The notes beneath the pieces are model-generated. The model saw nothing but the letters and a program-made list of their open reading frames with translations. It ran no database searches and had not been told where the DNA came from. Shown piece by piece: positions 3 to 24,014 of a stretch of DNA of 24,014 nucleotides. The position numbers were made by a program, and so were the translations under genes. This stretch comes from a virus. Each line of letters opens with the position of its first letter. Position 1 is the stretch's first letter. The stretch is taken from positions 1-24,014 of IMG/VR virus record IMGVR_UViG_3300021964_000528; one strand, 5' to 3'.

Positions 3-860
3 CACGGACAGTACCTGGATCCCCTGCTAGATGAGTGGTTGGCCTCGGTTGCTTCTGCCAGGGATTACAAAACGGTAGATCACTATCGACTGGATGTGCA
101 AAGATTTCTGCATGTTGCCCCCCCGAGAACTGGACAGCTTTCCTCCAAGGTCCAGGAACCATTCTACGACCACCTCCGCAGTTTGGGTCTATCCGATTCC
201 TCCATCAATTCTGCAGTCAGATCCGTGCGGGTTTTTGTTCGTTGGTTGTCGGAGAGGGAACTGCTGAAGCACCCAGTGACCTTGAAGGCATTGCGAACAG
301 TGAAGAAGAGACCACAGTTCTACAGCTCAGAACAGATCAAGCAGATGCTGGAATATTGCCGAGAGACTGCAGGTAGGAGATATACATTATTATATAGAGC
401 AATCTGGATACTCTCGCAGACAGGCATGAGGGGAGGGGAACTGTTGAATCTGAAGTGGTCGAGTGTGGAAGAGAAGAGGATCAAGATCGTCAGCACGGAC
501 AGTTGGCAGGTCAAATCACGACGAGATGCCTGGGTGCCGATCTCGCCAAAACTGCGGGAGGAAATGGTTCAGTGGGACAGATCAGGAGAATTCTGGGTAT
601 TGGATAAGGGAGATGGGAAACGATACTGGGCGCATTTGAACGAACTGACTGCCAGCATGAGATTTGTCCAGACCAAGTGCGACTGCCGAGGTCCGAAACC
701 TCTACACGGATTCAGGGCGGGAGTGGCAACGGAATTATTGAGACAGGGTGCTAGTCCGGTGCATGTGCAACGGTTGCTGCGTCATGAAGATCTGAGTACG
801 ACGATGGGGTACCTCGATCCAGATGCGTTGGAGATCGAAAATCTGGTGAGAAACCTATGA
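3..860 (+). CDS. int: Tyrosine integrase, 5' end cut by window edge
   Basis: Site-specific tyrosine recombinase that would integrate and excise the phage at a host tRNA gene. The frame is open to the left edge with no stop, reading HGQYLDPLLDEWLASV before the first possible internal start (TTG at 39), so the true start lies outside the window. Counting from that TTG codon, the catalytic set is complete: R131 in GMRGGELLNLKW, K159, H223 and R226 in LHGFRAG, H249 in LLRHEDLSTTMGYL, and the nucleophile Y258. The N-terminal part (about residues 1-90) resembles a SAM-like core-binding domain. It is the only + strand gene seen, convergent with the late operon, and it ends 41 bp before the tRNA-derived attachment site, the usual int-attP arrangement. 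The family call is secure; the recombination target is inferred from the adjacent tRNA fragment. Confidence 0.93.
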   Translation, partial: HGQYLDPLLDEWLASVASARDYKTVDHYRLDVQRFLHVAPPRTGQLSSKVQEPFYDHLRSLGLSDSSINSAVRSVRVFVRWLSERELLKHPVTLKALRTVKKRPQFYSSEQIKQMLEYCRETAGRRYTLLYRAIWILSQTGMRGGELLNLKWSSVEEKRIKIVSTDSWQVKSRRDAWVPISPKLREEMVQWDRSGEFWVLDKGDGKRYWAHLNELTASMRFVQTKCDCRGPKPLHGFRAGVATELLRQGASPVHVQRLLRHEDLSTTMGYLDPDALEIENLVRNL

Positions 861-1018
<158 letters not shown>

Positions 1019-3382
1019 TCAGTCGTCCAAAAGTCCAAATTCATTTGCCAATCCATACCCCCCTGCAGACGACATCAATCCACCTCGCAAATCTCTAGCA
1101 GCACGGTCTCGCATGTACTGTTCTCGGATAGGGATGAAGTCCTGCAGTCTTTGCAGAACTGCTTGGTTTTCATCGAACCCTGTTGCCTTCATCATTGGCA
1201 GCATTTGCTCAGACATCCGCAGGTTCTCCAGTCGGTTGACATTTAGGAAGTCTGGAACATTCCTTCTGGTGATTCCAAGAAATGCCTGTGGACTGTTATA
1301 GGACGCAGCAAGTCCTAAGACATCAAGTGGATCAATCCCTCCTTGTTCTTCTTGAGCTGCAAGTCTTCTTGCTGTTGCTGAGTTGCCCATTGTGTAGTTG
1401 TAGGTTCCTGATCTCCTGCGTTCCACATCCATCATCTGTTTGTAAATATTGAAGTTGTCTTCATTGCCAAACATCAGACGGATTCGTTTCTTCATATTTT
1501 CAGAATTCCAATCACTGGCACGATCTCCCATCTCGGCAGTCTTCTCGCCCATCCGAGTCGTCAACTTTTCAACAAATCCTTTTCTGAGTGCATCCATCTG
1601 GTTCTCAGATCGAACCTTTTTATTGATGTATTCTTCCAAGTCTTTTGGATTCTCGCTTGCGGCCTTTTCATACCCATATTTGACATGATCAATCATCTGT
1701 TTGTTGTCCATGCCTTCATCAAGTAGTCGTGCATAGGTTTGATTTTCAGCCCGTGCTGCACCCATAATCTCATTTAGATTCTGTTCCAAGGACTGTGCTG
1801 CCCTTCCTCCAATGTATCCAGGCTCTGAAGGGAACTTGCCTAGTGCATCCCTTGTGCTTTGTCGGAGGTCTTCTAATTGACGCAGAGTATAAGGTTCCAA
1901 AGGATTATTATCTGCATCAGCAATGGGGCCATAACTTGGCAACCCTCTTCGTTTGTAATCTTCTCGCAGCAGTTCGTAGTTTGGAGACATTCGATCATCT
2001 CGACGAATGACAGTACCGTAAGTTGGATCTGTCATTACCTGACCTTCAATGTTTTTGTACTCTGGATTGATGTTGGTATACCGTTCTTGGTCGAGTCGTT
2101 CTTTTGCCATCTGGGGAGTCTCACCTTCCCCCAAAAATCGTTGCAATGCTGCAGGGACTCGTTCCTTCTGATCTCGTTGTCTTGCCTGCAGTAGTTCGGC
2201 AAGCTGTTGATTCCCCTCACCTGGTCGATTGACTAAGGTATCTGCAACATTCATCACGTTTCTGCCATACAGATCAGGGAACATGGTTTGATCTGCATTG
2301 ACTTCACGGGGAAGTGCGGCCTGATCTCCCAGTCGTTGTCTTCCCACATTTACAGCATCAATCCCTGTTTGGCCTGTGTCTCGTTCTGCTGCCAGTAGCA
2401 GTTTTGCAGTGGCACGGTTTGCTGGTTCGTTGGGACTACTGCCAAGACCTGGGGGATTGATAATATTTCCATTGCCTCCATTGTTGGCACGGATCAGTCC
2501 ACCTAATCGGCTTGCTGCGTCCATACCAGCGCCAATCACACCCTCTCCTACTGCTCCAGTTGCGCCACCAAACAAACTGCTGGCAAATACCTTGTTGGGG
2601 TCTGCATCAATGCCTGCTTGAGTTGCAGCTCCCTCTGCTGCACCAACAATCCCACCTTGCCCCATTCTTCTCGCAAAATTCCGAACTCCTTGCCCTTCTT
2701 GCAGTGCTAAAGGTCCTCGGTTCGTTACCGCAGAGATGGGACGACCAAGAGGATAACTGCCGAGAACTGACCCAGACAATTCTGCAAAATTTGCGGCAGC
2801 AGGATTGAATTCACGGTAATTGGTTTGTTCCTGATTGATTGCGCTGAGTCGTTCCTGGTAAGCATCCAGAGATTGTTCCTCTGGTGTGGACATTGCCAGT
2901 AAGAAGGCTTCTGCTTCATCGGCAAAGGTCCCTACAAATGGAAGACCCTGAGCAAATTGACGGGCAAACTGTTTGATTCTGGGGTTGATCCCTTGAACGT
3001 CAGTGTCCTGCACCATCTGCTCTGCTGTTCGGTTGTCACTACCCCGAAACTGAGGACCTGGTCTTCTTGCCATTCGGTAATCTGCTTCCCGTTGAACATC
3101 TTCCATTCGTTTGCCAATGGTGTTCTCTAAACGGGAGGTGATCGCTTTCTCCAGTCCTGCCTTGCCTTGGTATTTGTTCTTCCTCAAGAACTTGTCAATT
3201 GCCTGCTCAATGACTTCAGGACTATCTCCTCGGCCTGTTCTTTCCAAACGGATGTTTGTAATGGCCTTTACAATTTTAGTAAGTCGAGTGTCCTTCTGAT
3301 CATTTGATGCGTACTTCAACCAGAGTTCTGTGACTACTGGAGAGATGGGGGTCCATGCCTTGAGGTAAGGTCCAGTTTCCAT
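1019..3382 (-). CDS. Large ejection/internal virion-type protein (787 aa)
   Basis: Probable virion protein delivered with the DNA (pilot or ejection type). Residues about 137-215 carry a pattern that recurs in phage internal proteins: an aromatic/Gly stretch ending in FADEAEAFL, then SLDAYQERLSAINQEQ, then FNPAAANFAELSGSVLG. A Gly/Ala-rich weakly hydrophobic stretch follows (about 240-296), of the kind that could insert in membranes. Residues about 330-600 hold long charged helices, including ADTLVNRPGEGNQQLAELL and a QLEDLRQSTRDALGKF segment, also typical of these proteins. It is the last gene of the late operon and starts 2 bp after the stop of the previous gene. Such trios of large proteins occupy the place of T7 gp14-16 or P22 gp7/gp16/gp20. 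No lytic transglycosylase motif was recognised. The role is inferred from composition, pattern and position. Confidence 0.65.
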   Translation of the reverse strand: METGPYLKAWTPISPVVTELWLKYASNDQKDTRLTKIVKAITNIRLERTGRGDSPEVIEQAIDKFLRKNKYQGKAGLEKAITSRLENTIGKRMEDVQREADYRMARRPGPQFRGSDNRTAEQMVQDTDVQGINPRIKQFARQFAQGLPFVGTFADEAEAFLLAMSTPEEQSLDAYQERLSAINQEQTNYREFNPAAANFAELSGSVLGSYPLGRPISAVTNRGPLALQEGQGVRNFARRMGQGGIVGAAEGAATQAGIDADPNKVFASSLFGGATGAVGEGVIGAGMDAASRLGGLIRANNGGNGNIINPPGLGSSPNEPANRATAKLLLAAERDTGQTGIDAVNVGRQRLGDQAALPREVNADQTMFPDLYGRNVMNVADTLVNRPGEGNQQLAELLQARQRDQKERVPAALQRFLGEGETPQMAKERLDQERYTNINPEYKNIEGQVMTDPTYGTVIRRDDRMSPNYELLREDYKRRGLPSYGPIADADNNPLEPYTLRQLEDLRQSTRDALGKFPSEPGYIGGRAAQSLEQNLNEIMGAARAENQTYARLLDEGMDNKQMIDHVKYGYEKAASENPKDLEEYINKKVRSENQMDALRKGFVEKLTTRMGEKTAEMGDRASDWNSENMKKRIRLMFGNEDNFNIYKQMMDVERRRSGTYNYTMGNSATARRLAAQEEQGGIDPLDVLGLAASYNSPQAFLGITRRNVPDFLNVNRLENLRMSEQMLPMMKATGFDENQAVLQRLQDFIPIREQYMRDRAARDLRGGLMSSAGGYGLANEFGLLDD

Positions 3383-3384
3383 AG

Positions 3385-5289
3385 TTAATTACCGATTGCT
3401 TCGTTATATCCGTCAAGCCCAACTGCATTAATGTTGGGAAATGGTCGATACCGACTACTGGGGTATTGTTGTTCAAGCAATCCCAATTTGTTTTGGAAAA
3501 TGTCTTTCAATGTGTTGAGTTTGACCTGCAGGGTCTCTTCCGAATCTGTTTCCAGAGGAACTGCGGCCTTAATGCGATCAAACTCCTGCTTTGTCAGTGC
3601 AGCACCAAACTTCTCATTTAATCGATCAGAGGTAAGGTCTGCCATCAATGCCCTGAGTTGTTTGGCTTTTGCAGGAATTACCACCCCTGGGAAATATCCT
3701 TGAATGTCCCCTACGCCTTTGATTGCCTCTTCATCCTTTAACAACCCAATGGACTGATCAATTTGGTTTAGAGTAATTTGATAATCATTATAATTTCGGA
3801 TGTCGGTTGCATTGATTTCCTTCTTTGGTGGAACCGTTGTGCCACCTGGGATCTCATCCATTGCTAGATTGTTTCGATCCAACAACATCAAGCGACTTCC
3901 TTTTGTCGGATCATTTGGATCAACAGGCACACTGACGACTTGAGGAGTTGAACGCCCCTCCATAATCCGTTCAGCAAGTTGTTGTGGATCTGCACCTTGT
4001 TCGTCAATCAGATATTGTGCAGCTTTTGCTTGCAATGAATCCCCAAACAAACCCCCTTCGGGTTTCTCTTGCTTGACCCGTTGTGCTGCGATTGTTTTTG
4101 CAGTGTCCTTCAAGATAGACAGAGGCAATCCTGCTGCACTTTCGGCATCATACTCTCCAGACTTAATCAGAATCTGTTCAAACGGTGTTCTGTCGGTTGT
4201 GGAATTCTGATGCAGCTCATTGAATCGATCTCGGTCTTGCCGTGCCAAGGTCGTCAGGTTGATTTTGCGTGTCTTGTTGTCCGTCTTGCCCTCTGCAACA
4301 AGGATCTCGTTGACCATGCCTTCAATCTGATTTTTCTCTTCTGCCAATCGCATGATTCGATCCGTGTATCCCTCGTTACGTTCATCCATCCGACTGCGGG
4401 CATCATCCATCATGACACCCTTGAACATCTGGTTGAATTCCCGTTCTGATCTACGGTACTCATCTTCCAGTTCCTGCCTCTCTTCTTCTTTCAGTCGTTG
4501 ACTCGTCGTCCCATACCCTTGGATGAATCCACCTACACCCTTGGCAAGAGCATTGGTCAAGGAGACATCATTTGGGTTGGTGGAATATTGGGGAGCAGAC
4601 ATCAATCCTAGTCCTGCCTGCAATAATCCCATCCGAGTCGGATCATTGAAAAGTGACGGGGCAGAGTCCTGCTCCTCATCCAGCAGACCTGCAGAAAACA
4701 AGTTAGGAATCCCAAACTCGGTTTTGGGACTCGTGGGTTGAGGTGGATTCACAGCAGGCAGTTTGCCCATCGGAGGTGCACCTGGGATCTGCGGAACGGT
4801 TGCATTCTCTGGTTCGGAGAGTAGGGAACCACCTGCCTGTGCAGGTAACCTCATTGGAGGTAATTTAGGACGATTCTCCAGTGGGAATCGTTGTCCTAAA
4901 GTCGTTGGATTCTTTGATGGGACCCCTGTCCCAATCAACTGCTGTGGATTCATCCGAGACTGCACCGTCAGGTCACGATTCAAATCAGGGTTCTGTGCCT
5001 GTTGGATCACTGCTGCAGGGTCAGATTCCAACGGAGTCACCGCAGGTTGCTTGACTTGAAAACTCATCGATTCTTCGGGCATTGCAGGGCCTGCCTGGAA
5101 TGCGTCCTGCCGTCGTTGCATTCGATCTGCCGTGGACATCTGCAGTAACTGCTGAGTGTACGGTTCCAACCTCCGTTGAGCCAGTGCCCTAGACTGTGGA
5201 TCTCCAGACTCATACTGCCGCATCAACTCTTTGATGATTTGCTGGTCTGTGGCAGGGAACTGGTTCAGGTACTGATTGTACAACTGCAT
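3385..5289 (-). CDS. Ejection/internal virion-type protein (634 aa)
   Basis: Second of three large proteins at the end of the late operon. The N-terminal 60 residues are helical and charged (NQYLNQFPATDQQIIKEL and following). Residues about 90-190 form a Pro/Gln-rich linker, about 260-330 a strongly charged helical stretch, and the C-terminal 110 residues a more compact domain with FGAALTKQEFDRIKAAVP and TLQVKLNTLKDIFQNKL. This last pattern (GAAL-T-x-x-E near a charged helix) is shared by many large phage internal proteins. No enzyme motif, signal peptide or transmembrane segment was recognised. ATG start; the preceding gene ends 7 bp upstream and the next starts 2 bp downstream, so it should be translated with them. 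The function as an ejection or internal core protein is inferred from context. Confidence 0.6.
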   Translation of the reverse strand: MQLYNQYLNQFPATDQQIIKELMRQYESGDPQSRALAQRRLEPYTQQLLQMSTADRMQRRQDAFQAGPAMPEESMSFQVKQPAVTPLESDPAAVIQQAQNPDLNRDLTVQSRMNPQQLIGTGVPSKNPTTLGQRFPLENRPKLPPMRLPAQAGGSLLSEPENATVPQIPGAPPMGKLPAVNPPQPTSPKTEFGIPNLFSAGLLDEEQDSAPSLFNDPTRMGLLQAGLGLMSAPQYSTNPNDVSLTNALAKGVGGFIQGYGTTSQRLKEEERQELEDEYRRSEREFNQMFKGVMMDDARSRMDERNEGYTDRIMRLAEEKNQIEGMVNEILVAEGKTDNKTRKINLTTLARQDRDRFNELHQNSTTDRTPFEQILIKSGEYDAESAAGLPLSILKDTAKTIAAQRVKQEKPEGGLFGDSLQAKAAQYLIDEQGADPQQLAERIMEGRSTPQVVSVPVDPNDPTKGSRLMLLDRNNLAMDEIPGGTTVPPKKEINATDIRNYNDYQITLNQIDQSIGLLKDEEAIKGVGDIQGYFPGVVIPAKAKQLRALMADLTSDRLNEKFGAALTKQEFDRIKAAVPLETDSEETLQVKLNTLKDIFQNKLGLLEQQYPSSRYRPFPNINAVGLDGYNEAIGN

Positions 5290-15850: not shown

Positions 15851-16813
15851 TTAGGAAGTGGTCAAATCAAAGATTCCACCACTTGCGGCCTCTTGGGTGC
15901 TTTCGAGTCCCATCTCGCACACCAGATATTTGGTCTGAGCATCAGCGGTTTTTCCAAGTTCTGAAACCTGGAAGTTCCGCAGATAAGCCACTTTCCAATA
16001 CTCTGGATCAATTAGGAACGCATCACGCTCCCGCTGGAATCTATCTGTAACGACGGATAAATTTCCAAAATCGCTAGCAAAAACAGTCACATTTGCGCCT
16101 GCCGTATTGCTGTCAATCATCTCCCGTGCGATGGATCGTCCGGTCAATGTTGAAACAACGGTCTTATTGAAGGGTCCCACCATCAACAAGTTTGGTTCTC
16201 CACCCTGCGTGAAACAGGACTGCATGACTGTGTTGATCAGACTGGCAGTCAATGCTTGTTGGGCCGAGGAATCGGTTCGAGCTGTGGAACCAACAGTTAC
16301 TGGATCTGCACCAGTCGTGGCATCAAAACTGGTATTCGTGTCCAACCAGCAGCCGATCATGCCAGAGGTTCTGGCAGTCGTGCTGTTACCATTGTTTCGG
16401 GCCTGGTTGCTCAACAGTGCAGCTTCCACGGAACGCTTGAGTTCCTTGGTGCGTCTTGCCATCTGATGAGCCATCTGGCTGGTCTTGCCATACAACTTAA
16501 TTGCACTCTGGGTCCCAGTCACAGCAACTGCCCGACTCATGATCTGGCAGACGTTGCTGTTTCGGGTCGTCAGTGATGCTGCTGCAGCACTGATCGCATT
16601 CCCTTCCAGGTCTGTCGTTGTGCTGGTTGCAGACAGTTCCTCAGTGATCCACTCAAAAACTGTGTTGGATACGTTGCGGGTTCCGACTGAGTTGACAAAA
16701 GGGGTCTCAGTCGGAGAGATGTTGTAAACAATCTCCTTAATATCAATTACATCCTCTTCCGTTCCTGACGTTTTGATGTCGTAGGAGGTAGAGGCATTCG
16801 TTAAAAGTGCCAT
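15851..16813 (-). CDS. Major capsid protein, SU10 type (320 aa)
   Basis: Forms the icosahedral shell (HK97 fold expected). The diagnostic N-terminal region is YDIKTSGTEEDVIDIKEIV followed by YNISPTETPFVNSVG, which closely resembles SU10-family major capsid proteins. Later segments fit the same fold: SRAVAVTGTQSAIKLYG, a long helix region (MAHQMARRTKELKRSVEAAL), and the C-terminal ERDAFLIDPEYWKVAYLRNF. The length of about 320 aa is usual. It follows the scaffold gene by 55 bp, the longest gap in this part of the operon, and has its own Shine-Dalgarno (GGAG, nine bases before ATG). Highly expressed capsid genes often have such independent initiation. I am confident of the family. Confidence 0.88.
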   Translation of the reverse strand: MALLTNASTSYDIKTSGTEEDVIDIKEIVYNISPTETPFVNSVGTRNVSNTVFEWITEELSATSTTTDLEGNAISAAAASLTTRNSNVCQIMSRAVAVTGTQSAIKLYGKTSQMAHQMARRTKELKRSVEAALLSNQARNNGNSTTARTSGMIGCWLDTNTSFDATTGADPVTVGSTARTDSSAQQALTASLINTVMQSCFTQGGEPNLLMVGPFNKTVVSTLTGRSIAREMIDSNTAGANVTVFASDFGNLSVVTDRFQRERDAFLIDPEYWKVAYLRNFQVSELGKTADAQTKYLVCEMGLESTQEAASGGIFDLTTS

Positions 16814-16868: not shown

Positions 16869-17855
16869 TCAACGCAATAGTGCATCAAAGACTGCGACTG
16901 CATCTTGATTGCGCCCCGTCTTCTTCAGGCTCTGCATTGACTTTTTGAGTCGTGATGCACCTTCATCAGTGGGAACAAAATTTCTCCCTCTTGTCGTTGC
17001 AGTCTTGACTGTCGATTCAGAGGGTTTCTTCAATTGTTGCTTGGCTTGCGAGGTCGTCTTGTTCGCTTGCCAAGCTGAGTACAAAATTGCGACAAGGCGT
17101 GAGTCGTATGCTGCAGAGAGGTCTTGCTCGGTCAGACCAAACTTCTCTTGAGCAAACTTACGGATCTCAGCCTTCTCCGTCTTTGCGGTTTCTCTATCGG
17201 TCCATGCTGGGATTAGTTCCAGCAGGTTCTGTCGTTCGTTTTCCAAATGCTGGGCAAACTGCTGCTGCTGCAACTGCTGTTGTTCACTCTGCAGATACTG
17301 CATCTGCTGGGCACGTTCCTGTCGTGCCAACTGTCTGTCTCTGGCAGCATCCTTCTCCAAAACAAACTGGACAGGGTCCTCATGTCGCAACCGTTCCCAG
17401 GCTTGTGGGTCACTAGTCCACTGAGGTTCTGGTATATCGGGTTGCTGCTGGATCTGTTGGGCAAACTGATTGAGTTGCTGAACTCGTTGGGCATAGTCCT
17501 GTTGCAGTGCTTCTGCTTCTTTGCGTTGCTGGGCCAACTGCTGCGTTTTGCGTGTATAATCACTCTGTCTGCTGTACCCTTTCTGTAGCTCATCCAGACT
17601 GACCTCAACTTCTTCCCCGTCAATGATCACCTTGTAGAGTTCTGGTTCTGCCTGGGCCTCTACTTCTTCTTGTTCTTCTTCTTCGTCTTGTACATCTTCG
17701 TCATACTCGTCAATGGGTTCGTCAGTTTCCTCGGTCTCCGGTTGGGGTCGAGTGCCAAGTAGATCATCAAACTTATCGGCTACCAGCATGTCAGGGGTCT
17801 GGGGTGTTCCGTCAGATGTCACAGGGACATCGACCGAGTCCGCATATTCACTCAT
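16869..17855 (-). CDS. Scaffolding protein (328 aa)
   Basis: Internal capsid assembly scaffold, inferred from position just before the major capsid gene and from composition. It has an extremely acidic block (residues about 39-70, runs of Glu/Asp), then YKVIIDGEEVEVSLDELQKG, a Gln-rich coiled coil (about 85-210), a compact helical segment (TEKAEIRKFAQEKFGLTEQDL) and a basic C-terminus (SRLKKSMQSLKKTGRNQDAV). The 'DGEEVEVSLDELxxGY' string followed by QSDYTRKTQ occurs in many phage scaffolds, and a basic C-terminal helix is where scaffolds usually contact the shell. ATG start 2 bp after the upstream stop, with a good AAAGGAG site. Confidence 0.82.
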   Translation of the reverse strand: MSEYADSVDVPVTSDGTPQTPDMLVADKFDDLLGTRPQPETEETDEPIDEYDEDVQDEEEEQEEVEAQAEPELYKVIIDGEEVEVSLDELQKGYSRQSDYTRKTQQLAQQRKEAEALQQDYAQRVQQLNQFAQQIQQQPDIPEPQWTSDPQAWERLRHEDPVQFVLEKDAARDRQLARQERAQQMQYLQSEQQQLQQQQFAQHLENERQNLLELIPAWTDRETAKTEKAEIRKFAQEKFGLTEQDLSAAYDSRLVAILYSAWQANKTTSQAKQQLKKPSESTVKTATTRGRNFVPTDEGASRLKKSMQSLKKTGRNQDAVAVFDALLR

Positions 17856-18225: not shown

Positions 18226-20454
18226 CTAAGGGTCAAAAAGAAGGGAGCGGAGAGACGAAATGTCAGAAGTGGGAATATCTAGGTTAAATGCGTCGGTAGG
18301 ATTTAGAGACGCAATCTCATTCAGTAGGCCAGAGAACCGTCCACGGGATGCAGGTGTGTCGCTACGTCCCACTGGCCCTGGATCATCAAGTCGGTTATCT
18401 GCTCTGGTTGGAATCGATTCAGTAGCCCGTCTAGCCCGTCCAGCAAGACTGCTACTTGCTGATCTGTCGATGTTTGCAATTCTTCCTGCAGAACCGATTC
18501 GACCCTGTTCAAAAAAAGTTCTGACTGGGTTTTGTCTAACATCTGGATCTCCGGTGTATTTCATTACAACAATCTCAGGCATTCCCTGAGATTCATCCCA
18601 ACCTGTACTTTTCCAATAGTCTACCAGATCATCAACTTCTTGTTTAGTATAAAATTCTTTGTTGAACGGAATTCTTTCGACTACTTCAAAACCAAATCTT
18701 TCATAGGTGTCTGGCAGGAATCCGTTGGGGTTCTTTGCCGTTGGGACGGAGAAGGCATCAAGAACATTCCCCCCTTGCCGTAGTGCTTCCAACATTGTGC
18801 CAGGACCTGCAACTCCTCTCCCACCTTTTTCATTATTGAAAACACTTACGATGGCAACATCATCATTCGTAAACAGTGGATTCTTTAACCCATATTCATT
18901 GTTGTAGTTTGTTTCTCGTTTTAATCCAAATCCAATTTTTCCGTTCTCTCCCAGAGAATACAAAGACATTCTGCCAGACCTGATCATCTTGTTCAGATCC
19001 TTCATAGTCATTCTTCCGTTCTGTCCATCATACCGAGTCAAAGTAGAAGAAGCTGGAGATAGCGTCAATTCACGATTAAAGTCTGCAGCACCCTTCGTCT
19101 GCTTGCCACTCATTACTCGCCAATTGCCCAGACCTGCATCTGTTGCCAACCGTACTTGCCTTGGGGATTGAATAAACTCAAAAGGTTGGGAACGGATTGA
19201 TGACGCAATTTTTGGTGTGATCATTTGCAGGGGATAGTCCCGTGACCCGAATACATAATTGATGTCTCTCTCTGGCATTCCTGCTGCCCGTCGAGAACCA
19301 TAGAACTCAGGGTACAATGTCTCTGATTTGACAGGTGCAGCAAATCTTCCTACTACCTCACCTGCAAAAGTCTTGGTGTACGATGGATGCTCTCCCAGTA
19401 CATCCTTCCCCATCTCCAGAGGAATCAGATTCCCATCTGCATCACGATACGGTTTCATCACCAACATTGGCTGATGTCTCTGTGCCCCAGCAAACTCATT
19501 GCTGAGTGTTTCACGCACAATCTTCGCAGCAGGAGATCCTGCATCTGTTGCCTTTGCAGACTGCAAGGTCTTCAGAATTTCTGCACGTTTGTCAAAACTC
19601 AGTTGATCTGTGATCTTAAACACATCAGGGTCCTGCAGTCCTGGGAACTCAGGGACTTTCTTCTGAATTAAATCGTCTAAATCTTTTACCTGTTTAGCAG
19701 TCAATCGATTGTCTCGGACATATGCTGCCAACTGTTTCAGTGTTGCATTCATCACAGACTGATTGGACTGATGACTTTCGGGATTCATTGCGTGAACTGT
19801 GATGTAGTCCGCTTGTTTCCCTTGACCTCCAACCAAGTCATTCTTCCGTGCTGCCCAGATTGCCTCCGCAGGTTTGCGAGGTTGCCCCATCTCCTGCATG
19901 AAGGTGGGAACAGGTAAGTCTCTGGTTTGAGCTTCTGCAATCCTTGCTCTCTTCTGTGGATCTACTGTCTGAGCAACTCGACCTTCCTGCACAACGTATT
20001 CAGGACCACCAAGCAAAGGTTCTGGTGCATCAATTTTAGAACTGCCAATTCCTGTGAAATACCGACTCCCTGCAGTCAAATCTGCCTCAATTGGGGCAAT
20101 GGTTTTTCCAACATGCTCAGATGGATTAAAGATAGGGACTTCACTAAACTTACCACCTAGTTTTGGGAGTTTCTTAGAGACCGACCCAATTGCAGCAGTA
20201 GGCAATCCCTGTCCAGCCATCCCTGCTTCAGTGAGACTCTGCTCAAACTCTGGTTCTTCCAGCAAGTTTGCCAGTCGATCCCGTGGAGTGGCAAACGGTG
20301 CTACGGGGTAGTCCTCTTCGTACAGCAGAGACTTTGCTGCAGGTTGTAAAGGACTGAACATCGTGATCGCATCAATGAAGTTGCGAAACCTCTTCCCATA
20401 GTCCTCATTGGTGGCAATCGTGCTGCCCCGTGAACCGTAGCGTCGAGGAGTCAT
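18226..20454 (-). CDS. Polyvalent-type large protein with possible ADP-ribosyltransferase/GNAT-like C-terminal domain (742 aa)
   Basis: Encoded between portal and head-assembly genes, where MuF-type and other injected proteins often lie. Residues about 205-415 match, by eye, a domain seen in polyvalent proteins of phages and mobile elements: QADYITVHAMNPESHQSNQS, DLDDLIQKKVPEFPGLQDP, then HPSYTKTFAGEVVGRF and LYPEFYGSRRAAGMPERDI. Residues about 500-640 form a separate domain: LFTNDDVAIVSVFNN, NVLDAFSVPTAKNPNG, LPDTYERFGFEVVERIPFN and MPEIVVMKYTGDP. This resembles ART-type (ADP-ribosyltransferase) or GNAT-like effector domains of such proteins, and I cannot decide between them. The tail (640-742) is basic, Ser/Arg-rich and probably disordered. 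The DNA for the C-terminal domain is AT-rich (30-40% GC in sampled lines) against about 45-55% on both sides. ATGA overlap with the portal. Virion delivery and effector activity are inferred. Confidence 0.65.
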   Translation of the reverse strand: MTPRRYGSRGSTIATNEDYGKRFRNFIDAITMFSPLQPAAKSLLYEEDYPVAPFATPRDRLANLLEEPEFEQSLTEAGMAGQGLPTAAIGSVSKKLPKLGGKFSEVPIFNPSEHVGKTIAPIEADLTAGSRYFTGIGSSKIDAPEPLLGGPEYVVQEGRVAQTVDPQKRARIAEAQTRDLPVPTFMQEMGQPRKPAEAIWAARKNDLVGGQGKQADYITVHAMNPESHQSNQSVMNATLKQLAAYVRDNRLTAKQVKDLDDLIQKKVPEFPGLQDPDVFKITDQLSFDKRAEILKTLQSAKATDAGSPAAKIVRETLSNEFAGAQRHQPMLVMKPYRDADGNLIPLEMGKDVLGEHPSYTKTFAGEVVGRFAAPVKSETLYPEFYGSRRAAGMPERDINYVFGSRDYPLQMITPKIASSIRSQPFEFIQSPRQVRLATDAGLGNWRVMSGKQTKGAADFNRELTLSPASSTLTRYDGQNGRMTMKDLNKMIRSGRMSLYSLGENGKIGFGLKRETNYNNEYGLKNPLFTNDDVAIVSVFNNEKGGRGVAGPGTMLEALRQGGNVLDAFSVPTAKNPNGFLPDTYERFGFEVVERIPFNKEFYTKQEVDDLVDYWKSTGWDESQGMPEIVVMKYTGDPDVRQNPVRTFFEQGRIGSAGRIANIDRSASSSLAGRARRATESIPTRADNRLDDPGPVGRSDTPASRGRFSGLLNEIASLNPTDAFNLDIPTSDISSLRSLLFDP

Positions 20455-22556
20455 GCTGGCATCTGTCCCTGTGGAGGTTGCTGCTGGAACTGTTGTTCGT
20501 ACAGTTGCTGCTGTCGGACCTGGTCCACTCGTTCTAGTTCTCGGTTGCGGGTCAGTGCATCCAAGAGGGGACTGGCATCAATCGGTTGCCCGTACTTGAA
20601 GGACAATTCTTTCAGTTTGATGAAGAGTTCTGCCTCCATCTCGTCCCTCTTTCTGTCGTCTTCCCTCTTCATTTCTTCTTGTCTGTGGGCAATTTCGATC
20701 TGCTTTCTCTGGATCTCTGCCTGGGCCAGCATCTCTTCAGGTGAGGGTTGAGGAGGTTCGTTCTGCTGTTGCATCACTTGCTGCATCTGTTGCTGCAACA
20801 ATGCCTGCATCTGTTGGGGAGGTCTCAGGTAGGAACCTGCCTCTGCACCCAGTCCCTGATCTGCAAATAATCGTTGCAGAGTTTGGTAGTATTGCTCTGG
20901 ACCTACGATGGGATTCATCGGGCCGTACTGGGCAATCAACATCTCTTGTTTTGCCAAGAGTCCCAGCAGTGCTTGTCTGCGTTCTTCTTCAGATCCTCGT
21001 CCGAGGGGGAGGGTGATCAGGACATCGTAGTCAGAGAAACTCGCAGGATCGACGGGAACAAACTCACCCCTCAATCTCATGATGGTCGGTTGATCCATAT
21101 GCTGGAGGATCAATCCCAGCATTCTTTTGTAGAGTGGTTTAAATCCTGACTCGGCAATGTTCCGTGCGATCAGTTCCAGCCTGGCCTGTGCTGCCTTCTG
21201 GGTTGCACTCACTGCTACGGCAGTCGTCGATTGAAGCGCTTCTGCATCAAGTCCCTGACTTGCTCGACTGATCCCTGTGCGTTGTTCCTTGATTTCGTCC
21301 AAATATTGAAGGAGAGGGAATGCGGCTGCTCCAACAAAAGGCATCTCCAGCATTTGAATCGCACCTGCCTGTCGCATTGGGATCAATGCACCCACCTCAT
21401 CATTTGCCAGATCCTCCCAATCGACTGCAGATTCCAGGTAGGAGATTCGGGGTCTGGTGCTGAGAGACAGAGAGTCCAGCATGTTCCGCATGACTGCAGA
21501 CTTGATCCGTTGCACATCGGCAAGCTCGTCGTACAAGGACATGCCTCTCCAACTGTGCGGAAGTGGATCTTTGCGGATCAGAATGAAGGGATGACTATCT
21601 GCAGGTTCGTTCAGCAGGATTTCGTGAGCGTTGCCAATCGTGCAGATTCTGCGGAGTTCGGGGACCCCGTCACCATCTGCATCCACTCGGACATAGGACT
21701 CAACGTACTGGACTAGACGATTGGCTGGATCTGCATCCGTATCGTCCTCTTCTCTCCAGTTGGGATGCCGGAGGTTCCATTCTTCGTTTGACCTAAAATC
21801 GTCCTCGTATCCCTTGTACTCGATGATCGTTTCGTAGGGGTAGCCCAGTTCGACTAGGTCTCCGACTCTCAGCAGTTGTCGATGGGCGATGATCTTTGCA
21901 TCTTCCAGGGAGGTTGCCGTGCGGTTGATCAAAAATTCTTCGGGTGGTAGGCATTCTAGTCTCGTTTTGCCTCGTGGTATTCGTCTGGTCAGCACCACGT
22001 TGTAGAGACCAGGTTGCTCCTCGATCTCCTCACTGCTAGTAACTTCAAACCCTTCCTGCACAAACAACCCAATCTGCAGCTCATCAAGGCCCGTCAATTC
22101 TCTGGTCTGGATGTCATACAAGGTTTCATGCCAGCACTTGATGATGCCCTCGCCTTTGATGAGGCAATCTTTCATTGCGTCTGCGAACACGGAATATGCG
22201 TTGCTCTGTTGCATCATCCAATTCACTAGTTCCGTGGCCTGTGCTGCACCTGCCACATCTTCGGGACCACGGGGAATGAACTCACATGGTTTCTCATGAC
22301 TGAAGAAGACCCGCATCAGAGAGGGGAGGATCGAATGAACGGCATCATGAACGTCCCGACTGACAACCTGTGATCTGCCATCCTCTTCCTGGGGGGAGTC
22401 TCCAGAATCAGAGAAGGGACTGCCGAGGTAGTATCGGAAACTGGATGCTCGGACCGGACTGACCTCATCATCAATGTGATCGACGGCATCTTGCACTGTG
22501 CCAGCGATCCAGGCTTTCAGATCGTCTGCAGTCATCGGAGTGGGGGATTCAGCCAT
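20451..22556 (-). CDS. Portal protein, P22/SU10-like (701 aa)
   Basis: Forms the dodecameric DNA gateway at one head vertex. Recognisable segments are SQVVSRDVHDAVHSILPSLM and FFSHEKPCEFIPRGPED in the N-terminal wing, FADAMKDCLIKGEGIIKCWH, and the conserved helix block after PLPHSWRGMSLYDELAD continuing to RNMLDSLSLSTRPRISY (about 333-373), which is the hallmark of P22-type portals. Residues about 575-640 and the last 25 are extremely Gln-rich, suggesting a barrel-like or disordered tail inside the capsid. About 700 aa is usual for this family. ATG start directly after the TAA of the small gene upstream. The terminase should lie upstream of the right edge. Confident call. Confidence 0.85.
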   Translation of the reverse strand: MAESPTPMTADDLKAWIAGTVQDAVDHIDDEVSPVRASSFRYYLGSPFSDSGDSPQEEDGRSQVVSRDVHDAVHSILPSLMRVFFSHEKPCEFIPRGPEDVAGAAQATELVNWMMQQSNAYSVFADAMKDCLIKGEGIIKCWHETLYDIQTRELTGLDELQIGLFVQEGFEVTSSEEIEEQPGLYNVVLTRRIPRGKTRLECLPPEEFLINRTATSLEDAKIIAHRQLLRVGDLVELGYPYETIIEYKGYEDDFRSNEEWNLRHPNWREEDDTDADPANRLVQYVESYVRVDADGDGVPELRRICTIGNAHEILLNEPADSHPFILIRKDPLPHSWRGMSLYDELADVQRIKSAVMRNMLDSLSLSTRPRISYLESAVDWEDLANDEVGALIPMRQAGAIQMLEMPFVGAAAFPLLQYLDEIKEQRTGISRASQGLDAEALQSTTAVAVSATQKAAQARLELIARNIAESGFKPLYKRMLGLILQHMDQPTIMRLRGEFVPVDPASFSDYDVLITLPLGRGSEEERRQALLGLLAKQEMLIAQYGPMNPIVGPEQYYQTLQRLFADQGLGAEAGSYLRPPQQMQALLQQQMQQVMQQQNEPPQPSPEEMLAQAEIQRKQIEIAHRQEEMKREDDRKRDEMEAELFIKLKELSFKYGQPIDASPLLDALTRNRELERVDQVRQQQLYEQQFQQQPPQGQMPA

Positions 22557-22718
22557 TTATTTCTTTCTCGGTTTCTTTGCACCTGCTGCAGCAATGCGGA
22601 ATGTCTTGTTGCTGGGTCTGCCCTTCTCCCCAGGACGGGCCATGCGTTCTCCTGATCCCGCTTTGATCCGTGCTCGTTTCTTGCGGATGTTGTCAAAGAG
22701 GTTGGTTTTCTTTTTCAT
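22557..22718 (-). CDS. Small basic phage protein (53 aa)
   Basis: I place the start at ATG 22718 (MKKKTNLFDNIRKKRARI), one base after the stop of the preceding gene; a longer frame exists but would overlap that gene by about 75 bp. The protein is strongly basic with SGERMARPGEKGRPSNKTF and an Ala/Lys tail. Closely similar 50-60 aa proteins sit just upstream of portal genes in marine phages. Nucleic-acid binding is plausible from charge; no function is established. Its TAA is followed directly by the portal ATG. Confidence 0.7.
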   Translation of the reverse strand: MKKKTNLFDNIRKKRARIKAGSGERMARPGEKGRPSNKTFRIAAAGAKKPRKK

Positions 22719-22719
22719 C

Positions 22720-22980
22720 TCAACAATCCCATTGTTTGCGAGACCAGTAGTTTGCTTTGAGCTTGGATGTGGATTGGATGCCCCCTGAACGGGCACAGTA
22801 GGATTTTTTGCGGGAGGGTTGGTTCTTCTTAATGGTCAAACCACCTTTGACATCACCAAAGCGGACTAGACGGACCTGATCCCCTTCCTTGGCAAGGACC
22901 TCAAACTTCTTCTTGCCATCGGTGGATCTGCGAGGGCGATTGTACGCACTGAACGTCTTTCCACGGTAAGTGATTGCCAT
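22720..22980 (-). CDS. Small basic protein, DUF6321-like (86 aa)
   Basis: Contains FSAYNRPRRSTDGKKKFEVL, VRLVRFGDVKGGLTIKK and the C-terminal RKKSYCARSGG...ANYWSRKQW. This fits a widespread phage family (I recall it as DUF6321-like): a 'YN-x-P' start, a 'LVRFGD' strand and a RK-S-x-x-AR...YWSRKxW end. Function unknown. It is basic and may bind nucleic acid. ATG start at 22980 overlaps the methyltransferase stop by one base (TGATG), so the two are co-translated. Confidence 0.7.
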   Translation of the reverse strand: MAITYRGKTFSAYNRPRRSTDGKKKFEVLAKEGDQVRLVRFGDVKGGLTIKKNQPSRKKSYCARSGGIQSTSKLKANYWSRKQWDC

Positions 22981-24014
22981 CAGAGTAACCCCTTCATGAT
23001 TCTTTCCAGCACTGGGACAGACATGCTGTTGCCCAGCATCATGTACCTGCGGGTGTCCGAGGGACCTGCTGTGTAGTTCTCCGGTAGTCCAAAGAGACGT
23101 TCAATCTCGATGGGTGTCATCCGTCTCATTGATTCGTCTTCCATCCGCACAGCATTGTAGGGAACTCCTTTGTAGATCACCCTTGGAACCGTTCTTGCCG
23201 TAGGGTTGTTGACATCATATCCATGACGCTGAAAGTGCGTTCTGCCTGATTTCCCTGCAGGTCGGTTCATGTAATCCACGGCACGGTCTGATAACTGGTA
23301 TTTCTCTGGAACCTCTGCATCCAACAAGTCTCGGAACCTCGGCAGTTTGTCCGGTTTGCTCTGATCCACATCCATGTTTGTGAAGAACATTCTGGGACGG
23401 GCCATTGCCGAGTAGTCCCTTGCATCCATAATGATGGGTTCTGCCTCCAGTGCATCTCGGATGATCTTCACATCATCAGACTGCATGGATCCTCTGGGGA
23501 TCACATTCTCAAACACAAAATTCTTGGGCTGAACCTCGTCCTTCAGTCTCTTGTATTCCCAGAACAGTGATGACCGATCTCCTTCCAAACCCTTGCCCCC
23601 ACGATTCCCACGACTTAGATCCTGACAGGGGGAACCCCCACACATCAGATCCACATCCCCCACATCCTCTGCACGGATGCCCCGCACATCACCAAGGTCT
23701 GCACTGTCTGGATAGTTCTGCTGCAGAACCCCCTTGGCGTAGGGGTCGATTTCACTGGACAGATACTTGTCTACGGGGATTCCCAGACGATCCAGGGCCA
23801 CTCGTGCTGCACCCAGACCATCAAAGAGAGATAGCACTCTCTGGGGTTTCAGTCGGTTGATTCGGTCCTGAGCTGCAAATGCGGCTTCCCTGTCGATGTC
23901 TGCAGCATACGCAGTCATCGGACTGGTGGGTTCTCCCAGTACAGCAGTCAGACGATCAGGTGAGACCAGACCAAGGATGTCCAAGAAACTCAACTGATCC
24001 AGCAGTCCAGGTTC
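22980..24014 (-). CDS. DNMT3-like DNA cytosine-5 methyltransferase, 5' end cut by window edge
   Basis: Transfers methyl from S-adenosylmethionine to C5 of cytosine in DNA. All core motifs are visible (counted from TTG 23993): motif I RVLSLFDGLGAARVALDRLG (52-71), the SEIDPYA acid (81), motif IV GGSPCQDLS with catalytic C123, motif VI FVFENV (159-164), motif VIII MARPRMFF (197-204), RMTPIEIERLFGLPENYT, and motif X MLGNSMSVPVLERI. The layout (VLSLFDG, VDKYLSSE, GDVR, GGSPCxDLS, then a short target region) is closer to the DNMT3 type than to HhaI-like restriction methylases. The frame stays open to the right edge (EPGLLDQLSFLDILGLV), so the real start may be outside the window; ATG 23918 would give a shorter enzyme. 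No partner nuclease is seen. Confidence 0.88.
   Translation of the reverse strand, partial: EPGLLDQLSFLDILGLVSPDRLTAVLGEPTSPMTAYAADIDREAAFAAQDRINRLKPQRVLSLFDGLGAARVALDRLGIPVDKYLSSEIDPYAKGVLQQNYPDSADLGDVRGIRAEDVGDVDLMCGGSPCQDLSRGNRGGKGLEGDRSSLFWEYKRLKDEVQPKNFVFENVIPRGSMQSDDVKIIRDALEAEPIIMDARDYSAMARPRMFFTNMDVDQSKPDKLPRFRDLLDAEVPEKYQLSDRAVDYMNRPAGKSGRTHFQRHGYDVNNPTARTVPRVIYKGVPYNAVRMEDESMRRMTPIEIERLFGLPENYTAGPSDTRRYMMLGNSMSVPVLERIMKGLL

What the first reader, a model, noticed from the sequence alone, without database searches (positions are those of the whole stretch)
22980..24014. DNMT3-like cytosine methyltransferase inside the structural operon
The motif order and wording (VLSLFDG, VDKYLSSE, GDVR, GGSPCQDLS, ENV, ARDYSAMARPR, GNSMSVP) are strikingly like the animal de novo methyltransferase DNMT3 rather than restriction-linked enzymes. 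It is co-translated with portal-module genes, so it should act late, perhaps marking DNA around packaging. The target-recognition region between motifs VIII and IX is short, suggesting low sequence specificity.
Basis: partly seen in the sequence, partly recalled or inferred. Interest (0 to 1): 0.62.

Follow-up and report, generated by a model that had tools for sequence, protein, structure and literature searches.

The report
Virion-tagged DNMT3-like phage cytosine methyltransferase
This virus carries a DNA-methylating enzyme related to the animal enzyme DNMT3, and the enzyme begins with a protein tag also found on several unrelated probable virus-delivered proteins, which suggests it is packed into the virus particle and injected into the bacterium with the DNA.

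Summary
ORF 22980-24014(-) is a cytosine-C5 DNA methyltransferase (PF00145, E 2e-39). Its best matches by sequence, by profile and by predicted fold are DNMT3A/B, ahead of HhaI. That likeness belongs to a large phage/prophage family (phrog_116); it is not an animal gene, and its exact relation to DNMT3 is unresolved. The ORF is cut by the contig end. Near-identical relatives show 360 aa with a ~72-aa N-terminal leader that the other full-length family members examined lack. The leader is the main finding. It is shared (54% identity, E 2e-24) with an unrelated protein encoded just after the portal gene. Related leaders sit on ADP-ribosyltransferases, a PBECR nuclease and LPD/DUF7178 proteins in the same phages. 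Its core, GLLD(D/E), or a C-terminal (G/S)LLD, occurs in 32 of 37 cargo or ejection-type proteins and 3 of 251 others. Dcm-type methyltransferases in the same gene slot lack it. Best explanation: a capsid-loading tag, like the T4 capsid targeting sequence, on swappable effectors; the methyltransferase is packaged, injected and protects phage DNA from restriction. The tag's distribution is shown by sequence; packaging, injection and target site are inferred. New variant of a known kind.

The parts
22980..24014 (-). DNMT3-like cytosine-C5 DNA methyltransferase, 344 aa visible (360 aa in relatives L002-L004); 5' end cut by contig end; stop codon 22980-22982
23844..24014 (-). Visible part of the N-terminal leader (57 of ~72 aa): EPGLLDQLSFLDILGLVSP...AADIDREAAFAAQDRINR
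   Evidence: leader dN/dS about 0.06-0.08 against L004
23994..24008 (-). GLLDQ core motif of the leader (GLLDE in L003)
22983..23843 (-). Catalytic domain, including PCQ, ENV and RPR motifs
23127..23375 (-). Variable target-recognition region between motifs VIII and IX, 83 aa
22720..22980 (-). 86-aa gene translationally coupled to the methyltransferase (TGATG); phrog_7595, unknown function
22557..22796 (-). 79-aa gene between the 86-aa gene and portal (phrog_16028)
20451..22556 (-). SU10-type portal protein
   Evidence: PF23899 1.6e-172
18226..20454 (-). 742-aa protein directly after portal, start overlapping the portal stop; N-terminal RYGSRGST leader, GLLNE near the C-terminus, SLLFDP at the end; residues 504-643 match the C-terminal part of Microbacterium phage UtzChips 'minor capsid protein'
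16869..17855 (-). Probable scaffolding protein (by position and composition; no Pfam match)
   Evidence: same position as annotated scaffolds
15851..16813 (-). Major capsid protein (SU10_MCP)
   Evidence: PF17236 7e-82
3385..5289 (-). 634-aa ejection-type virion ORF with internal GLLDE (4675-4689); homologues in L260/L261 start with MLFGLLDDD
1019..3382 (-). 787-aa ejection-type virion ORF ending in GLLDD (1022-1036); homologues end in GLLD, SLLD or SLLSE, including Microcystis phage MJing1

Best explanation
The gene encodes an orphan, late-expressed cytosine-C5 DNA methyltransferase of the DNMT3-like phage family that carries an N-terminal capsid-loading leader. The leader (basic start, GLLD(D/E) motif, amphipathic segment, AADxDRDxAFAAQDR end) is shared with other swappable effectors of the same phages. 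It probably directs the enzyme into the prohead, near the portal or internal core, from where it is ejected with the DNA and methylates the entering genome, as DarB and the T4 internal proteins are thought to shield incoming phage DNA from host restriction. Shown here: the enzyme family, the shared leader, the motif's restriction to cargo and ejection-type proteins, and purifying selection on the leader. Inferred: late expression, packaging, injection, protection from restriction. Unknown: the target site.
For: Leader shared with the unrelated 466-aa post-portal protein in the same genome (54% over 70 aa, E 2e-24) and found on the 260-aa and 711-aa proteins. A hybrid leader on the L251 258-aa ORF links the methyltransferase type (E 3e-9) to the ADP-ribosyltransferase type (E 2e-13). 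Leader cargoes include domains named for polyvalent proteins: ART-PolyVal, PBECR5, LPD23 (PMC5512222). GLLD(D/E) near the N-terminus or (G/S)LL(D/E/F/Y/S) at the C-terminus: 32 of 37 cargo/ejection proteins against 3 of 251 others at 80% non-redundancy. After the motif had been noticed, newly fetched homologues of the 787-aa protein, 25-35% identical, ended in GLLD, GLLD, SLLD, SLLSE and, in MJing1, GLLD. Window: 4 motif-bearing proteins against 0.07 expected by shuffling, all in the predicted classes. Dcm-type methyltransferases in the same slot start at motif I. Leader dN/dS about 0.06 against 0.12 in the catalytic part. The cargo domain of the window's post-portal protein is fused to a capsid protein in Microbacterium phages, between portal and scaffold.
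Against: No virion proteomics or methylation data. The motif is short, was chosen after seeing part of the data, and the cargo class includes proteins found through the leader, so the p-values are descriptive. Outside this phage clade the motif weakens: in eight distant relatives few proteins carry it, some hits look like chance, and phiM5 internal proteins lack GLLD except for a terminal GLL. The ejection role of the 634- and 787-aa ORFs rests on gene position and weak similarity. AlphaFold gives the leader low confidence. No head protease that would remove a T4-like leader was seen.
Confidence: 0.55

Rival explanations
1. An ordinary orphan phage methyltransferase that acts in the infected cell on progeny DNA before packaging, to protect the phage from restriction in the next host. 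The leader is a domain gained by recombination in a variable gene slot and does not send the enzyme into the virion.
For: The family is widespread in phages (1318 phage records hold a match) and mostly sits in early/replication modules without a leader. In sister phages the same slot holds leaderless Dcm-type methyltransferases.
Against: The leader is under purifying selection, is shared with unrelated cargoes, and its core motif recurs at the termini of strongly diverged ejection-type proteins, which recombination alone does not explain.
Confidence: 0.25
2. The leader docks the enzyme on the portal or packaging complex so that DNA is methylated as it enters the head, without injection into the next host.
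For: Gene position between terminase and portal, translational coupling (TGATG), and the shared leader on the gene directly after portal.
Against: The other leader cargoes (ADP-ribosyltransferase, PBECR nuclease) make sense inside a host rather than in packaging; the motif is also on proteins at the far end of the virion operon.
Confidence: 0.13
3. Recent gene transfer from a eukaryotic DNMT3 gene.
For: DNMT3A/B are the best matches among solved structures.
Against: Whole-domain neighbours are phage sequences (L174, L176 with 97/92 support); the DNMT3-like features are family-wide in phages and bacteria; DNMT3A sits on a very long branch.
Confidence: 0.02

Closest known systems
DNMT3A/DNMT3B catalytic domain (and plant DRM2)
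   Same: Motif order, GGSPC(N/Q)DLS, FENV, DA(K/R)..SA..RPR/RAR, G.S.SVPV, overall fold; best PDB hits by sequence, profile and structure
   Different: No ADD or PWWP domain; viral leader instead; about 28-31% identity; not shown to be a sister sequence
phrog_116 / PF00145 phage orphan C5 methyltransferases
   Same: Same domain family; closest full-length relatives are phage and prophage enzymes
   Different: Others start at motif I and usually lie in early modules; this one has the leader and lies in the packaging/head operon
T4 internal proteins with capsid targeting sequence (IPI and others)
   Same: Diverse proteins united mainly by a shared N-terminal sequence in a head context (PMC3012670)
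   Different: No sequence relation shown; longer leader; motif can also be C-terminal; no protease cleavage site or protease identified
Phage P1 DarB and other polyvalent proteins
   Same: Methyltransferase plus other effector domains linked to virion genes and predicted to be injected (PMC5512222)
   Different: DarB is an adenine methyltransferase-helicase inside large proteins; here effectors are separate, smaller proteins with a common leader, and the enzyme is C5 DNMT3-like
Encapsulin cargo-loading peptides
   Same: Short terminal hydrophobic motifs that load diverse cargo into an HK97-fold shell (general knowledge; leads)
   Different: Different motif; no binding site tested here

Membership tests
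Cytosine-C5 DNA methyltransferase (PF00145) | Profile match and conserved motifs I, IV (PCQ), VI (ENV), VIII (RxR), IX-X | tested here: met
   E 2e-39; invariant columns in A5/A7
Cytosine-C5 DNA methyltransferase (PF00145) | Catalytic activity on cytosine in DNA | not testable with these tools
   needs enzyme assay or bisulfite/nanopore data
Eukaryotic DNMT3 family | Catalytic domain closer to DNMT3 than to HhaI/Dcm types | tested here: met
   100/100 split from HhaI/Dcm
Eukaryotic DNMT3 family | Falls in the DNMT3 clade itself rather than a prokaryotic/phage clade | tested here: inconclusive
   query groups with phage sequences L174/L176 (97/92); grouping with DNMT3A alone neither supported nor rejected (p-AU 0.49)
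Eukaryotic DNMT3 family | ADD/PWWP or other eukaryotic accessory domains | tested here: not met
   only PF00145 found; intact relatives have only the viral leader
T4-type capsid targeting sequence system | Common N-terminal sequence on otherwise unrelated proteins of one phage group | tested here: met
T4-type capsid targeting sequence system | Tagged proteins are inside the virion and are ejected | not testable with these tools
   no proteomics for this clade; phiM5 virion proteome annotated but leader absent there
T4-type capsid targeting sequence system | Leader removed by a head protease | not tested
   no protease seen among the ORFs searched, no systematic search
Polyvalent proteins | Large multidomain effector proteins of 2-15 domains | tested here: not met
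   methyltransferase is leader plus one catalytic domain
Restriction-modification methyltransferase | Adjacent cognate restriction endonuclease | tested here: not met
   neighbours are terminase, dCTP deaminase-like, small genes and portal

The most novel reading that the evidence does not exclude
GLLD(D/E) (N-terminal) or (G/S)LLD (C-terminal) is a general cargo-loading peptide of this podovirus group: it brings ejection proteins and a rotating set of effectors (DNMT3-like methyltransferase, ADP-ribosyltransferases, PBECR nucleases, others) into the capsid for injection. It would be a capsid-targeting system unrelated in sequence to that of T4, with a virion-borne cytosine-5 methyltransferase as one payload.
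Probability: 0.45. Interest if true: 0.78.

Novelty: new variant of a known kind. Interest (0 to 1): 0.6.

Why it matters
A readable loading tag would let one predict which phage proteins travel in the particle from sequence alone, and would make virion-delivered effectors (including a DNA methyltransferase acting on entry) directly testable in small podoviruses. It also puts a DNMT3-like enzyme in a plausible anti-restriction role and adds phage sequences to the unresolved question of where eukaryotic DNMT3 came from: two DNMT phylogeny papers checked here (PMC3227630, PMC12344493) do not contain the word phage in their main text.

Tried and rejected
Leader tblastn against cultured phages: no usable match. 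Leader scans of IMG/VR: only this clade. CpG depletion as a trace of methylation: present (0.67) but equal in relatives without this enzyme, so uninformative. Structure of the post-portal 742-aa protein: model too poor (mean pLDDT 46), not used. Eukaryotic transfer: rejected as above. Low specificity from a short target region: weak. AU tests to fix the position of DNMT3A: not decisive. Literature searches for a DNMT3-phage link or a GLLD-like loading motif: nothing found in the open-access library.

Full report
**What was checked.** The window is one complete IMG/VR record, a linear fragment of 24,014 bases. The finding is an open frame on the minus strand, 22980-24014, which runs into the contig end. 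Three near relatives (86-87% identical; L002, L003, L004) contain the whole gene, 360 aa, starting MAKRYGSRGSTIRATREPGLLD. The first 16 residues are therefore missing in the window. The stop codon overlaps the start of the next gene as TGATG. The gene order in transcription direction is methyltransferase, 86-aa gene, 79-aa gene, SU10-type portal, 742-aa gene, 89-aa gene, probable scaffold, SU10-type capsid protein. In relatives, terminase and a dCTP-deaminase-like gene come just before.

**The enzyme is DNMT3-like, and so is its whole phage family.** Pfam gives C5 methyltransferase at 2e-39 and PHROGs gives phrog_116 at 5e-56. Among solved structures the best matches are DNMT3A (5e-28), then DNMT3B/C, DRM2 and HhaI (4e-20). 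A profile of 12 phage relatives scores DNMT3A at 176 bits and HhaI at 131. An AlphaFold model (pLDDT above 90 over most of the catalytic core) matches only DNMT3 structures in the top 50. In cultured phages 1318 records hold a match to this protein. In a 147-sequence quick tree and a 43-sequence careful tree the phage/prophage family, the query and DNMT3A are separated from HhaI, HaeIII and Dcm-type enzymes (99 and 100/100). DNMT3A sits on a very long branch. Tests do not decide whether it lies inside or beside the phage family (p 0.30) or next to the query (p 0.49), nor do they exclude the query grouping with the HhaI/Dcm side (p 0.35). The query's supported neighbours are two other phage sequences (97/92). 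So 'DNMT3-like' is right, but it is a family trait and not evidence of an animal origin.

**Target region.** The stretch between motifs VIII and IX is 83 aa; the family median is 103, DNMT3A has 59, HhaI 95-101. This is in the lower quarter of the family, and I do not think it says much about specificity.

**The leader.** Of 184 full-length hits of this family only the window's lineage has this ~72-aa N-terminal leader; most others begin at motif I. The same leader is on an unrelated 466-aa protein encoded immediately after the portal in the same genome (54% over 70 aa, E 2e-24), on a 260-aa protein in the methyltransferase slot of another genome, and on a 711-aa post-portal protein. The window's own post-portal protein (742 aa) has a shorter match at its start (RYGSRGST; E 3e-6). 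The leader is kept under purifying selection (dN/dS 0.076/1.22, about 0.06; catalytic part 0.112/0.90, about 0.12).

**Cargo swapping.** In 63 portal-bearing loci the post-portal gene keeps its N-terminus while the rest changes: 442-482 aa with LPD23, 536-537 aa with PBECR5 nuclease, 466 aa DUF7178-like, 682, 711, 742-760 aa. The methyltransferase slot holds, in other genomes, ART-PolyVal ADP-ribosyltransferases with a related leader, a 260-aa protein, or a Dcm-type methyltransferase that has no leader and starts at motif I. That last case shows that the slot alone does not create the leader. An extra 258-aa ORF in L251 has a hybrid leader that joins the ART type (E 2e-13) to the methyltransferase type (E 3e-9). 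ART-PolyVal, PBECR and LPD domains were described in polyvalent proteins, which are predicted to be injected with phage DNA (PMC5512222). Part of the window's 742-aa protein (residues 504-643) matches the C-terminal part of a 'minor capsid protein' encoded between portal and scaffold in Microbacterium phages (E 1e-4 in the database, 1e-11 pairwise).

**The GLLD motif.** The leader core GLLD(D/E/Q) also occurs at the C-terminal end of the window's 787-aa ORF (GLLDD) and inside the 634-aa ORF. Both are in the last part of the virion operon, where phiM5 has its three internal virion proteins. In the window there are 4 such motifs against 0.07 expected after shuffling, all in cargo or ejection-type genes. 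Homologues of the 787-aa protein fetched afterwards, only 25-35% identical, end in GLLD, GLLD, SLLD and SLLSE, and the distant homologue in Microcystis phage MJing1 ends in GLLD; homologues of the 634-aa protein start with MLFGLLDDD. Post-portal proteins end in SLLD, SLLF or SLLFEED whatever their cargo. Over 288 non-redundant proteins of the clade, 32 of 37 cargo/ejection proteins carry the N- or C-terminal motif and 3 of 251 others do; one of those three ends exactly like the PBECR5-type post-portal proteins. These counts are descriptive, because the motif was defined on part of the data. In eight more distant genomes the signal is weaker; MJing1 (two post-portal proteins with N-terminal GLLDD, one ending in GLLGGDE) is the clearest.

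**Interpretation.** The simplest reading is a loading tag for the virion. T4 is a close functional parallel: its internal proteins are diverse defence proteins sharing only a capsid targeting sequence (PMC3012670), and P1 DarB is a virion-borne methyltransferase that protects DNA in cis (PMC5512222). By this reading the methyltransferase is packed with the DNA, ejected and methylates the entering genome. What is shown is the tag's distribution and the enzyme family. Packaging, injection, timing and target are inferred. I give this 0.55, an ordinary intracellular orphan enzyme 0.25, and a packaging-complex marker 0.13.

**Score.** As a DNMT3-like phage methyltransferase alone the finding would be modest. 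The shared leader and terminal motif raise it: new variant of a known kind, interest 0.6.

Noticed in passing
L009, L014, L018, L024, L025, L027, L028, L037, L040 between the dCTP-deaminase-like gene and portal: A second, Dcm/HhaI-type C5 methyltransferase without leader occupies the same slot in sister phages, so the slot repeatedly acquires cytosine methyltransferases.
   Followed up: partly
L021 517-1233, L024 9151-10008, L019 3334-4143, L046 401-1186, L035 7161-8000, L260 11848-12534: ART-PolyVal ADP-ribosyltransferases with their own KLE(Q)QQGLLDE leader, usually before portal, once after portal and once in the tail region.
   Followed up: partly
L251 7584-8360: 258-aa ORF of unknown function beside the integrase with a hybrid leader joining the ART and methyltransferase leader types.
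   Followed up: partly
window 3-860: Tyrosine recombinase (PF00589) on the opposite strand at the end of the virion operon; related phages have it too, so this group may integrate.
   Followed up: no
window 18226-20454, residues 504-643: Domain shared with the C-terminal part of Microbacterium phage UtzChips minor capsid protein (VG15-type N-terminus), encoded between portal and scaffold.
   Followed up: partly
L034 7002-9104: The same slot holds a 245-aa protein that looks like a PAPS-reductase type and an SPPY-motif DNA methyltransferase (by eye), another possible DNA-modification set.
   Followed up: no
L004 2626-3147 and equivalents: A dCTP-deaminase/dUTPase-like gene follows terminase in most relatives of the main group.
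   Followed up: no
window and relatives: CpG is depleted (observed/expected about 0.67-0.75) in the main group whether or not the DNMT3-like enzyme is present; L053 has 0.47.
   Followed up: partly
L081 30667-32873 (Microcystis phage MJing1): Two post-portal proteins, a SAM-methyltransferase-like 231 aa and a DUF7178 504 aa, both with GLLDD near the N-terminus; a cultured phage in which the tag idea could be tested.
   Followed up: partly
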